64,000 nucleotides of DNA from Vampirovibrio chlorellavorus (GTDB lineage Bacteria > Cyanobacteriota > Vampirovibrionia > Vampirovibrionales > Vampirovibrionaceae): positions 62,001 through 126,000 of the forward strand of contig LAPX01000004.1 in the NCBI GenBank assembly GCA_001858525.1, written 5' to 3'. Under the pieces are notes generated by a model. That model saw only the letters and a list, made by a program, of their open reading frames with translations, was not told the origin of the DNA and made no database searches. The position numbers and the translations under genes are program-made. Of the stretch, positions 31,674-34,448 are shown piece by piece (the stretch's first letter is position 1; every line of letters begins with the position of its first letter).

Positions 31674-32306
31674 TTACTGAGGGATGGCCTTTCCGGTTAC
31701 ATCCACCGAAACGTAAACGGTTTCAGCCAACTTCACAAAAATGGCCTCGGGGCGTTTGATTTTGTGCTGGGCCAAAGTGACCGGGAACTTACCGCGCACC
31801 CGCACCGTGCCGGGTTGTTTTGATTTACCCGGGGTATAATCCACGGTCAAAGGGATGGTCTTGCGCACCGTCACCCCATGCACGGTCAAATCTCCAATGG
31901 CATCCAGCTTTAGGCTTTGCGGCTTGGACAAGTCCGGCTTCTGGCTGAACTGAACCCGCTGGGTGACAAATTTGGCCTGCGGATACTGTTTGGTCTCCAA
32001 AAAATTATCCCGCATGTGCTCATTTCGCAAAGGAATCCCCGTATCAATACTGGCCAAATCCACATTGAAGGTAATGGCAAAAGGGTGCTTGGCATCCAAT
32101 TTAAAACTGTCATCCAGCTTGATGTCCCCCTGAACCCCATGTGTATTGCCGGTAATAACCTCCACCGGGGCATCCGAATTAAAGGAGATCTGATCCTTGC
32201 TGTCCCCTTGTACCTTGAAGTGCAATGGCTTGGCCAAACTGGCAGAGGTGCAGAGCCCAACAGCCATGACTGCAGACACCAGACGGACTCCGAAACGATT
32301 GAACAT
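31674..32306 (-). CDS. YceI family periplasmic lipid-binding protein
   Basis: An exported beta-barrel (lipocalin-like) protein of 210 aa. The signal peptide (VRLVSAVMAVGLCTSASLAKP) is followed by the family pattern: FNSDAPVEVITGNTHGVQG, ASIDTGIPLRNEHMRDNFLETKQYPQAKFV, IGDLTVHGVTVRKTIPLTVDY. This family binds polyisoprenoids in its barrel. It starts 55 bp after the DUF2063 gene on the same strand and I see no terminator between them, so it is probably the fourth gene of the bufferin-like operon. That link is inference from spacing. Confidence 0.88.
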   Translation of the reverse strand: MFNRFGVRLVSAVMAVGLCTSASLAKPLHFKVQGDSKDQISFNSDAPVEVITGNTHGVQGDIKLDDSFKLDAKHPFAITFNVDLASIDTGIPLRNEHMRDNFLETKQYPQAKFVTQRVQFSQKPDLSKPQSLKLDAIGDLTVHGVTVRKTIPLTVDYTPGKSKQPGTVRVRGKFPVTLAQHKIKRPEAIFVKLAETVYVSVDVTGKAIPQ

Positions 32307-32361: not shown

Positions 32362-33186
32362 TTAGATTGAACCAGACAAAGACCCCATCAAAATGCCTTT
32401 CCCCAGACAATCTTCAAACAATCCTTGGGCCTGACGCTTTAAAACTGCTCCTGATAATTGAACCAAGGCGGGGATCTCGGATTGCAAAGCCGTTAAGGTC
32501 GCCTCGTAAGAAGCACCCTTACCGCTCAGACGTAAAAGAGTGGCGGTTAGTTCATTCACCACAAAGAATCGAGCGTCCAAAGTGCGCGGGTCGCGATAAA
32601 TCAATAAATCCTGTGGAACGCTGAACCGTGCGGGGTTCTCCAGCACGGACTGGGGCGACGCCTTCCAGGCATCCAGCAGCACCGGAATGTTATAAGAGAA
32701 GGTATACAACCGTCGAATCGGATTCCAAACGGGCTGATACTGGTCAAATAAAGCAACATCCGGAACCATCGACGCCAGCCCCTCATGCAAAGCGGGTTCA
32801 GGGTCATTCAAAACGGCCATTTCCAGCCATTCGTAACGGGCCAGATCGGCGATAAACGGAAACTCGGCCATCAAGGCAGACTGTTTCCCCAGAAACTGGG
32901 AGAAATCGCAAATGGCCCCTATCAAACTGTAAGAGCGATTGGGACAAGCGCGCCGGTATGCCTCCACCAATCCCCGCCATTGGTTTTCCTCTCCCTGATG
33001 GTGCGTTAACACCTGATGGGTAAAGGGGTAAATATTTTCCACGGTGCCACACACCGTGTTAAACAGCAATTCCTCATACAAAGCCAAGACACGGACTTTC
33101 GGGTCTGCCACACGGCCAACCTGCGCTTCCTGTGATGGCTTCAACAGCAAGGTGCCCACCTGATCTTGCCACTCACGCAGGGACAT
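32362..33186 (-). CDS. bufC: DUF2063 protein, bufferin-maturation partner (HvfC/BufC-like)
   Basis: A 274-aa protein matching the DUF2063 family. The N-terminal helical domain (about 1-110) begins with LREWQDQVGTLLLKP and VRVLALYEELLFNTVCGTVENIYPFTHQVL, ending with FPFIADLARYEWLEMAV. The C-terminal part (about 150-260) has an RRLYTFSYNIPVLLDAW element. HvfC-type proteins bind the precursor's leader and pass it to the DUF692 oxidase; this is known of the family, not shown here. The start overlaps the DUF692 gene by 14 bp, so the two are translationally coupled. Confidence 0.88.
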   Translation of the reverse strand: MSLREWQDQVGTLLLKPSQEAQVGRVADPKVRVLALYEELLFNTVCGTVENIYPFTHQVLTHHQGEENQWRGLVEAYRRACPNRSYSLIGAICDFSQFLGKQSALMAEFPFIADLARYEWLEMAVLNDPEPALHEGLASMVPDVALFDQYQPVWNPIRRLYTFSYNIPVLLDAWKASPQSVLENPARFSVPQDLLIYRDPRTLDARFFVVNELTATLLRLSGKGASYEATLTALQSEIPALVQLSGAVLKRQAQGLFEDCLGKGILMGSLSGSI

Positions 33187-34123
33187 GCGCCAGCGCCCCC
33201 TTCAGATGAACCATTTGATTGACCACAGGCTGACCGGTTTGCTCCCACAACTGCCGAATTTTTTGCAATTCAGGCACCAAGGTAGCAAACGGGGGCAAAT
33301 GGGTGTCCCGCTCCAGCATAACCCCACAAGGACGGGTTCGTTGCAAGACCCATTCCAGCAAATCCCACACCGGGCCAATCACAGGCGCGCCATGTGTATC
33401 CACCAAGCCTTCCGGGAACTGATGATGCCCGGCCACATGAATCTGCACCACCCGCTCCAGCGGAATATTTTCCAGGAAAGTCAGCGGGTCAAAGCCATGA
33501 TTGACCGAATTAACGTAGACGTTGTTCACATCCAGCAGCAGGCCACAATCGGCCTCCGTCACAATTTCGCTGATAAAATCGGCATCCGCCATATCATCAA
33601 AGGGCGTATTCAAATACTGCGAGATATTTTCAATCAGGAAGACCCGCTGAATGCGGTCCTGAACCTGATGAATTCGGGACACCACGTGCCTCACAGTCTC
33701 CCGAGTTCGAGGCAATGGCATCAGATCGTTAAAATAAAGACCGTCCACACTGCTAAAACAGAGATGATCGCTAAACCAGGCCGGTTGTGCCCAGTCAAAC
33801 AGCGCCGCCAAGTCCCGCAGATAGACCTCCGAGACAGGATCAACGCTTCCCAGAGACAGACTGACCCCGTGGCTCACCAGCGGAAAGTGCGCCTGAGCCC
33901 GCTGCAAAATGCGAATCGATTTGCCCCCACGGCCCATATAGTTTTCCGGGGTAAATTCCAGCCAGTCAATGACGTCCGTGGCGGCCAAGGTTGATTCCAG
34001 GAGAGGTCTGCGAAGTCCTAAGCCAACGCCCAGTACCGGGCACTGCTGAAAACCCACCAAAGCCCCATTCGGCTCCGGCGTGTTCAACACTGCGCTACCC
34101 TCTCCTGAATTCAACACTTGCAT
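33173..34123 (-). CDS. bufB: DUF692 multinuclear non-haem iron oxidase (HvfB/BufB/MbnB type)
   Basis: A TIM-barrel oxidase of 316 aa. Metal-site motifs are all present in order: SHGVSLSLGS, SDHLCF, IENISQYL, LLLDVNNVYVN, IHVAGH, DTHGAPV, and LERDTHLPPF. In the family these bind two or three irons and oxidise cysteines in a peptide precursor to oxazolone/thioamide or thiooxazole groups that bind copper. The gene lies 16 bp after the small His/Cys-rich precursor and overlaps the DUF2063 gene, the classic order of bufferin clusters. The ATG has only a weak ribosome site, so coupling to the precursor is likely. Confidence 0.93.
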   Translation of the reverse strand: MQVLNSGEGSAVLNTPEPNGALVGFQQCPVLGVGLGLRRPLLESTLAATDVIDWLEFTPENYMGRGGKSIRILQRAQAHFPLVSHGVSLSLGSVDPVSEVYLRDLAALFDWAQPAWFSDHLCFSSVDGLYFNDLMPLPRTRETVRHVVSRIHQVQDRIQRVFLIENISQYLNTPFDDMADADFISEIVTEADCGLLLDVNNVYVNSVNHGFDPLTFLENIPLERVVQIHVAGHHQFPEGLVDTHGAPVIGPVWDLLEWVLQRTRPCGVMLERDTHLPPFATLVPELQKIRQLWEQTGQPVVNQMVHLKGALAHVPA

Positions 34124-34139
34124 TAAGGATTACCGATAA

Positions 34140-34448
34140 TTACTTGTGAGCCCCGCAGGCACCCGCGGCGCATTTGTGATCCGCGTCTTTGCCGTGATCT
34201 TTGTCAGCACCACAATGATGTTCGCCGTCTTTATGGTGATCGGCATCTTCATGATGCTCCCCGTCCTTGTGTTCACAGGCTTTGTGCTCGTCGGCCTTGG
34301 CCCCGTCATGGTGCTCCGCTTCGGCGATCAAAGTACCCTGACTGGAGACTTCGCTTAACTGAAACAGGGATTCCGCCTGAGCGGCAGTAATAGAGGCGGC
34401 CAAACCCACCGTCAAGGCAACGGCAGGAACAATTTTCTTGTAATTCAT
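34140..34448 (-). CDS. bufA: Bufferin-like exported precursor peptide, His/Cys-rich
   Basis: A 102-aa precursor. The signal peptide (KKIVPAVALTVGLAASITAAQA, cut near residue 25) is followed by SLFQLSEVSSQGTLIAEAE, which resembles the F-x4-S-S-G-x2-LA segment after the signal peptide in HvfA/bufferin precursors. Residues 46-102 contain 13 His and 4 Cys (58, 79, 93, 98) plus many Asp, Glu and Lys, with DGEHH repeats. The usual EGKCG repeats are missing; the closest match is KCAAGACGAHK at the end. It probably sequesters copper or another metal in the periplasm after modification. A strong AAGGAG site precedes the ATG, fitting high expression. Confidence 0.8.
   Translation of the reverse strand: MNYKKIVPAVALTVGLAASITAAQAESLFQLSEVSSQGTLIAEAEHHDGAKADEHKACEHKDGEHHEDADHHKDGEHHCGADKDHGKDADHKCAAGACGAHK

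What the first reader, a model, noticed from the sequence alone, without database searches (positions are those of the whole stretch)
32362..34448. Bufferin-type operon with a His-rich precursor lacking EGKCG repeats
The order precursor, DUF692 oxidase, DUF2063 partner, with 16-bp and overlapping junctions, is the known bufferin/HvfABC arrangement. All DUF692 metal motifs are intact. The precursor keeps the signal peptide and the F-x4-S-S-G-x2-LA-like segment, but its core has 13 His and only 4 spread cysteines, with DGEHH repeats and no EGKCG. This suggests a different core peptide: either a modified site at KCAAGACG and HHCG, or a mixed His/thiooxazole metal binder. I know of no description of such a precursor from this lineage, but cannot check the literature or databases.
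Basis: partly seen in the sequence, partly recalled or inferred. Interest (0 to 1): 0.78.

Follow-up and report, generated by a model that had tools for sequence, protein, structure and literature searches.

The report
Copper-buffer peptide operon, His-rich precursor
This is a three-gene operon in an uncultured Vampirovibrio relative that very probably makes an exported peptide whose cysteines are oxidised to bind copper, a known and widespread kind, but here several cysteine repeats have turned into histidine/aspartate repeats.

Summary
A minus-strand operon encodes a 102-aa Sec-type precursor (13 His, 4 Cys), an MNIO/DUF692 enzyme with all motifs intact, and a DUF2063 partner whose predicted fold matches the solved MNIO partners NGO1945 and TglI. 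Relatives show it is a vertically inherited cassette of Vampirovibrionia, under purifying selection, although one congener has lost it.

The precursor belongs to the class's own [DE]HKCG-type family: a profile trained without its genus finds it at E = 6e-15. It is therefore a bufferin/oxazolin ("captophorin") type cassette, not a new kind. The apparent lack of EGKCG has a simple history. Relatives carry 5-11 Cys; this lineage lost one Cys by substitution (EHHCG to EHHDG) and one within a 33-residue deletion. The "DGEHH repeats" are pentads with Asp in place of Cys.

What remains is one conserved C-terminal tandem pentad (DHKCA-AGACG) plus EHHCG. These three Cys fit published substrate rules for thiooxazole formation; the fourth (HKACE) does not. 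YceI follows as a fourth gene in 19 loci of the class and is not mentioned in the mining papers read.

New variant of a known kind. The chemistry, the metal bound and any role for the His residues are untested.

The parts
34140..34448 (-). Precursor (BufA/HvfA-type), 102 aa, 4 Cys, 13 His
   Evidence: Leader and full profiles built from relatives outside the genus hit only this ORF in the window; dN/dS 0.11-0.12
34374..34448 (-). Predicted Sec signal peptide, residues 1-25 (...TAAQA/ES); also the probable recognition sequence
   Evidence: Read from the sequence; no lipobox. Full-length HvfA including its signal peptide is preferred by HvfBC (PMC13419390)
34323..34364 (-). Conserved leader segment FQLSEVSSQGTLIA, residues 29-42
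   Evidence: Aligned with LFQ[LM][NS]EVSN-GALIAE of relatives
34302..34316 (-). Pentad EHHDG (residues 45-49); Cys replaced by Asp relative to EHHCG of congeners
   Evidence: Pairwise alignment
34260..34274 (-). Pentad EHKDG (residues 59-63), an EHKCG-like repeat with Asp at the Cys position
   Evidence: DHKDG also occurs in L007
34209..34223 (-). Pentad EHHCG (residues 76-80), probable modification site C79
   Evidence: Congeners have KHQCG here; Cys followed by Gly fits FonBC rules (PMC13097082)
34152..34181 (-). C-terminal tandem pentad DHKCA-AGACG (residues 90-99), probable main modification site C93 and C98
   Evidence: Cys-Cys spacing of 5; the last Cys pair is spaced 5 in 13 of 14 class precursors, 6 in the other
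33173..34123 (-). MNIO (DUF692, PF05114) peptide oxidase, 316 aa
   Evidence: PF05114 6e-101; NCBIfam BufB 315 bits, cut-off 310; 14 motif residues including the expected ligands intact, substrate-side R38-R39 kept, T274 at the FonB Phe250 position
32362..33186 (-). PME type 1 partner: DUF2063 domain plus RRE-type domain
   Evidence: PF09836 2e-8; AlphaFold2 model pLDDT 90.6; best PDB folds 3DEE (NGO1945) and 8HCI/8HI7 (TglI)
31674..32306 (-). YceI-family exported lipocalin, downstream fourth gene
   Evidence: PF04264 1.6e-21; same position after the partner gene in 19 distinct Vampirovibrionia loci; retained alone in congener G001

Best explanation
A captophorin-type (bufferin/oxazolin-type) RiPP cassette. 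The precursor is made with a Sec signal peptide. The DUF2063-RRE partner and the MNIO enzyme bind it in the cytoplasm, partly through the signal/leader region, and oxidise selected Cys (loss of 4 H each, 5-thiooxazole), most likely C93 and C98 in the tandem pentad DHKCA-AGACG and C79 in EHHCG. C58 (HKACE, followed by Glu) is predicted to stay unmodified. The peptide is then exported and buffers copper in the periplasm. The remaining pentads have changed from [DE]HKCG-like to His/Asp repeats (EHHDG, EHKDG), which may add weaker metal ligands. Shown here: gene order, family membership, intact motifs, partner fold, selection, history of the Cys losses. Inferred: modification, site choice, export timing, copper, role of His.
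For: Family matches and intact MNIO motifs with the R-R pair of Lys-Cys MNIOs. Partner fold matches 3DEE and TglI. Same gene order across Vampirovibrionales and an MNIO tree consistent with descent. Precursor family membership, E = 5.9e-15. Strong purifying selection on precursor and enzyme. C-terminal Cys pair kept across the order. NCBIfam HvfA model aligns along most of the length of several relatives' precursors, sub-threshold. Substrate rules from the Fontimonas enzyme: Ala tolerated at pentad positions 3 and 5, charged residue after Cys not, two repeats needed (PMC13097082).
Against: The NCBIfam HvfA cut-off is missed by far (16.8 against 95). The FonB Phe250 position is Thr here, so Fontimonas rules may not transfer. 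The second tandem pentad starts with Ala, and the corresponding E6A change impaired turnover in FonA. No metal-responsive operator was found upstream. A 97%-complete congener lives without the cassette.
Confidence: 0.78

Rival explanations
1. Mixed-ligand metal binder: His/Asp pentads and a few thiooxazoles act together, shifting preference or capacity towards Cu(II), Zn or Ni compared with Cys-only captophorins.
For: 13 His in a 58-residue core, highest His/Cys ratio (3.25) of 14 class precursors. [DE]H[KHQ][CD][GA] pentads occur 4 times against 0.09 in shuffled cores. The core stays under purifying selection. A DHKDG pentad also occurs in L007.
Against: His precedes Lys-Cys in many relatives (DHKCG), so the His may be an inherited spacer. 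No metal data. Most other class precursors are not His-rich.
Confidence: 0.3
2. A relaxed, partly decaying captophorin: Cys sites are being lost and only the terminal pair still matters.
For: Two of six Cys sites of the nearest congeners are gone, and one congener lacks the whole cassette.
Against: Purifying selection on all three genes (dN/dS 0.11-0.24) and no frameshift or stop.
Confidence: 0.12
3. The MNIO performs a different reaction on this core (for example at Asp or His), not thiooxazole formation at Cys.
For: MNIOs are chemically diverse and some modify non-Cys residues (PMC12452194). The FonB Phe250 position is Thr.
Against: The enzyme groups with bufferin/oxazolin MNIOs (BufB model over cut-off), has a type 1 partner, and relatives' cores are KCG repeats.
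Confidence: 0.07

Closest known systems
Captophorins of the Lys-Cys (EGKCG) group: oxazolin/HvfABC, fontiphorin, gonophorin
   Same: Gene order, Sec precursor, MNIO with R-R pair, DUF2063-RRE partner, pentad repeats with Cys at position 4, leader segment of the same type
   Different: No EGKCG; pentads are [DE]H[KH]C[GA] with several Asp in place of Cys; few Cys; Thr instead of Phe next to the catalytic Asp; YceI rather than DoxX alongside
Bufferin 1 (DUF2282) and bufferin 2 (6/12 Cys) of Caulobacter
   Same: bufABC order; the MNIO just passes the NCBIfam BufB cut-off
   Different: Precursor has no DUF2282 match and no six-Cys CKG pattern
[DE]HKCG precursors of other Vampirovibrionales (L005-L008, L018, L019, L021)
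   Same: Same leader, same C-terminal Cys pair, same operon, often the same YceI neighbour
   Different: 5-11 Cys and lower His/Cys ratio
Methanobactin (MbnABC) and 3-thiaglutamate/pearlin (TglHI) systems
   Same: MNIO family and conserved motif residues
   Different: Distant MNIO (PDB 7DZ9 4.7e-10, 8HCI 1.8e-19), no Sec signal in their precursors, other partner types

Membership tests
Captophorin (MNIO-PME1) cassette | MNIO enzyme with intact metal-site motifs | tested here: met
   PF05114 6e-101; 14 motif residues intact, aligned with 3BWW
Captophorin (MNIO-PME1) cassette | Partner with DUF2063 and RRE-type domains (PME type 1) | tested here: met
   PF09836 over cut-off; model matches 3DEE at 8.9e-8
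Captophorin (MNIO-PME1) cassette | Cys-containing precursor with Sec signal directly upstream | tested here: met
   Sequence, and family profile E = 5.9e-15; the signal peptide is judged from sequence only
Captophorin (MNIO-PME1) cassette | 5-Thiooxazole installed at Cys | not testable with these tools
   Needs mass spectrometry and NMR
Captophorin (MNIO-PME1) cassette | Product binds copper / protects from copper | not testable with these tools
   Needs biochemistry and genetics
Oxazolin/HvfA (Buf_EGKCG) | EGKCG repeats; NCBIfam NF050188 and NF050137 cut-offs | tested here: not met
   NF050188 16.8 bits against 95; no NF050137 match. Relative L030 passes NF050137
Bufferin 1 | DUF2282 precursor | tested here: not met
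   No DUF2282 match at E <= 0.1
Bufferin 2 | Six (or twelve) conserved Cys with CK motifs | tested here: not met
   4 Cys, none followed by Lys
Bufferin maturase BufB (NF050167) | Score over curated cut-off 310 | tested here: met
   315.1 bits, but close congener L004 (305.3) and other relatives fall just below, so it does not discriminate
HvfB maturase (PRK05409) | Score over curated cut-off 360 | tested here: not met
   289.3 bits

The most novel reading that the evidence does not exclude
In Vampirovibrio the captophorin core has been remodelled from Cys-pentads to His/Asp-pentads, giving an exported peptide that binds metal through both thiooxazoles and His/Asp clusters, with a metal preference different from copper-only captophorins, and works with a dedicated YceI lipocalin.
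Probability: 0.22. Interest if true: 0.55.

Novelty: new variant of a known kind. Interest (0 to 1): 0.36.

Why it matters
The two large mining papers describe captophorins mostly from Pseudomonadota and by EGKCG, CK or DUF2282 motifs. This case shows a class of non-photosynthetic Cyanobacteriota carrying the cassette by descent, with lineage-specific pentads, and a natural series in which modifiable Cys are replaced by Asp while a C-terminal pair is kept. That gives a natural test of the minimal substrate and of whether neighbouring His contribute to metal binding. The conserved YceI neighbour suggests a possible link between metal buffering and protection from lipid peroxidation.

Tried and rejected
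An ATGGAA-GAGA-TTCCAT inverted repeat upstream of the precursor looked like an operator, but congeners do not keep it and no operator is shared with other genera. One sigma-70-like promoter match upstream is a weak consensus match and proves nothing. The Pfam DUF3245 hit to the precursor (E = 0.001, below cut-off) and the zinc-protein hits (ZrgA, ZnuA) look like His/Asp-rich composition matches. There is no second copy of the precursor elsewhere in the genome. Sequence search of the partner against the PDB found nothing; the fold search did. The FonB Phe250 position varies (T, L, Q, S, F, D, N) roughly with core type, but this is confounded by phylogeny and not strict, so it is descriptive only.

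Full report
What is there. On the minus strand lie a 102-aa precursor (34140-34448), an MNIO/DUF692 enzyme (33173-34123), a DUF2063 protein (32362-33186) and, 55 bp further, a YceI protein (31674-32306). Upstream is ileS.

Lineage. The window is part of a 3.0-Mb genome. Its closest MNIO relatives are records named Vampirovibrio sp. and Vampirovibrionales, i.e. non-photosynthetic Cyanobacteriota. In 58 relatives searched, 34 carry an MNIO match; in the order, 12 of 18. A tree of 91 MNIOs places the window's enzyme with its congeners inside a Vampirovibrionia group, which fits descent rather than recent transfer.

Enzyme. The MNIO scores 315 bits against the NCBIfam BufB model (cut-off 310) and 289 against HvfB (cut-off 360). 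Relatives fall just short of both cut-offs, some nearer BufB and some nearer HvfB, so these models do not settle the subtype. The conserved motif residues H85, D119, H120, E165, N166, D198, N201, H209, H229, H233, D242, H244, E271 and D273 are all present and match 3BWW. Which of them bind iron rests on general knowledge of the family and on PMC13419390. Of the substrate-side residues described for FonB (Arg15, Arg16, Phe250; PMC13097082), the two Arg are kept (R38, R39), while the Phe position is Thr274. That position is Thr in the genus, Leu in nearby genera, Gln in Obscuribacterales, Ser or Phe in other families.

Partner. The DUF2063 protein was modelled at mean pLDDT 90.6. Its only strong PDB fold matches are NGO1945 (3DEE, 8.9e-8) and TglI (8HCI, 8HI7), the known MNIO partners.

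Precursor family. Upstream of the MNIO in most relatives is a small exported, Cys-containing ORF. Vampirovibrionales precursors share a leader (LFQLSEVS..G.LIAE) and cores built of [DE]HKCG-like pentads. A profile of eight such precursors from outside the genus finds the window ORF at 5.9e-15, and a leader-only profile at 5.5e-14; no other window ORF and none of 200 shuffled-core controls reached E = 0.5. NCBIfam's HvfA model aligns along most of the length of several relatives (for example L008, 31.9 bits) but below its cut-off of 95. L030, with DHKCG and EGKCG repeats, passes the KCGExKCG_twice domain. The window precursor is therefore the His-rich end of a series that starts at ordinary EGKCG-like precursors.

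How the His-rich core arose. Congeners G002 and G004 have six Cys. Aligned with them, the window precursor has EHHDG where they have EHHCG and lacks a 33-residue stretch with another Cys. The EHKDG pentad, with Asp at the Cys position, is already shared with the congeners, and DHKDG occurs in L007. Four [DE]H[KHQ][CD][GA] pentads occur in the window core against 0.09 expected in shuffled cores, none of 20,000 shuffles reaching four. The pattern was chosen after looking at the sequences, so this number is descriptive. The His/Cys ratio of 3.25 is the highest of 14 class precursors. The last two Cys are spaced by 5 residues in 13 of these 14 and by 6 in the other, the same period as EGKCG-EGKCG. 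This C-terminal pair is what the window keeps.

Selection. Window versus G002 and G004: dN/dS 0.11-0.12 (precursor), 0.12-0.13 (MNIO), 0.23-0.24 (partner), 0.05-0.06 (YceI). The cassette is maintained. One congener (G001, 97% complete) has no MNIO and no DUF2063 match and shows ileS directly followed by yceI, without the three genes; since related genera carry the cassette, often at the same place, this is most simply a loss.

Mechanism. Work on fontiphorin, oxazolin, gonophorin and bufferin shows that MNIO-PME1 pairs turn Cys into 5-thiooxazole and that the products bind copper. For the Fontimonas enzyme a substrate with two pentads was modified and one with a single pentad was not, Ala was tolerated before and after Cys, and a charged residue after Cys was not (PMC13097082). 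HvfBC prefers precursor with its signal peptide (PMC13419390). By these rules C93 and C98 (DHKCA-AGACG) and C79 (EHHCG) are likely sites and C58 (HKACE) is not. This is inference from another lineage's enzyme, whose Phe250 is Thr here.

YceI. It follows the partner gene in 19 distinct Vampirovibrionia loci (Vampirovibrionales and Obscuribacterales), is single-copy in this genome, and scores lower against PF04264 (74-88 bits) than most unlinked copies in Obscuribacterales (above 160 bits), so it may be a separate subfamily. YceI is not mentioned in the main text of PMC12452194, in PMC12538549, or, by the search index, in PMC12668002, the preprint of the captophorin paper; supplements were not read. 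A YceI protein of Burkholderia limits lipid peroxidation (PMC9113575); a copper-related antioxidant role here is speculation.

Verdict. It is a variant of a known kind: PMC12452194 already reports hundreds of small signal-peptide ORFs with 1-18 Cys next to MNIOs of this cluster. The His-rich core is a lineage-specific remodelling whose effect on metal binding is an open, testable question.

Noticed in passing
31674-32306; also L003-L008, L014, L040-L043, L046, L049-L053, L067: YceI lipocalin gene as a conserved fourth gene after the MNIO partner gene in Vampirovibrionia; possibly a separate YceI subfamily.
   Followed up: partly
L113 (G001:C2:52000-66000): A congener has ileS directly followed by yceI, with the precursor, MNIO and partner genes absent.
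   Followed up: yes
L014, L040, L042 (upstream of the MNIO gene): Second exported small ORF with an ACGKGSCGTDEKG motif before the CKGKEG-type precursor: tandem precursor genes in Obscuribacterales.
   Followed up: no
L020, L022, L024-L026 (family f8): MNIO and partner genes without a clear Sec-type precursor; L022 and L024 have very short ORFs with KCGEGQCGGDG or NCGEDECGGDG next to the MNIO start.
   Followed up: no
L018, 1130-1312 of the reverse complement: A second small exported peptide ending in HCGTGKKGGEKK lies between the ten-Cys precursor and the MNIO gene.
   Followed up: no
L009/L037, L019/L075: DoxX gene upstream of the precursor in loci where no YceI was seen after the partner gene; the L009 precursor has a lipobox-like LLAGC.
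   Followed up: partly
Obscuribacterales loci such as L011, L015, L038: Precursors made of SCKGKEG repeats (Cys-Lys type) with Gln at the FonB Phe250 position of their MNIO.
   Followed up: partly
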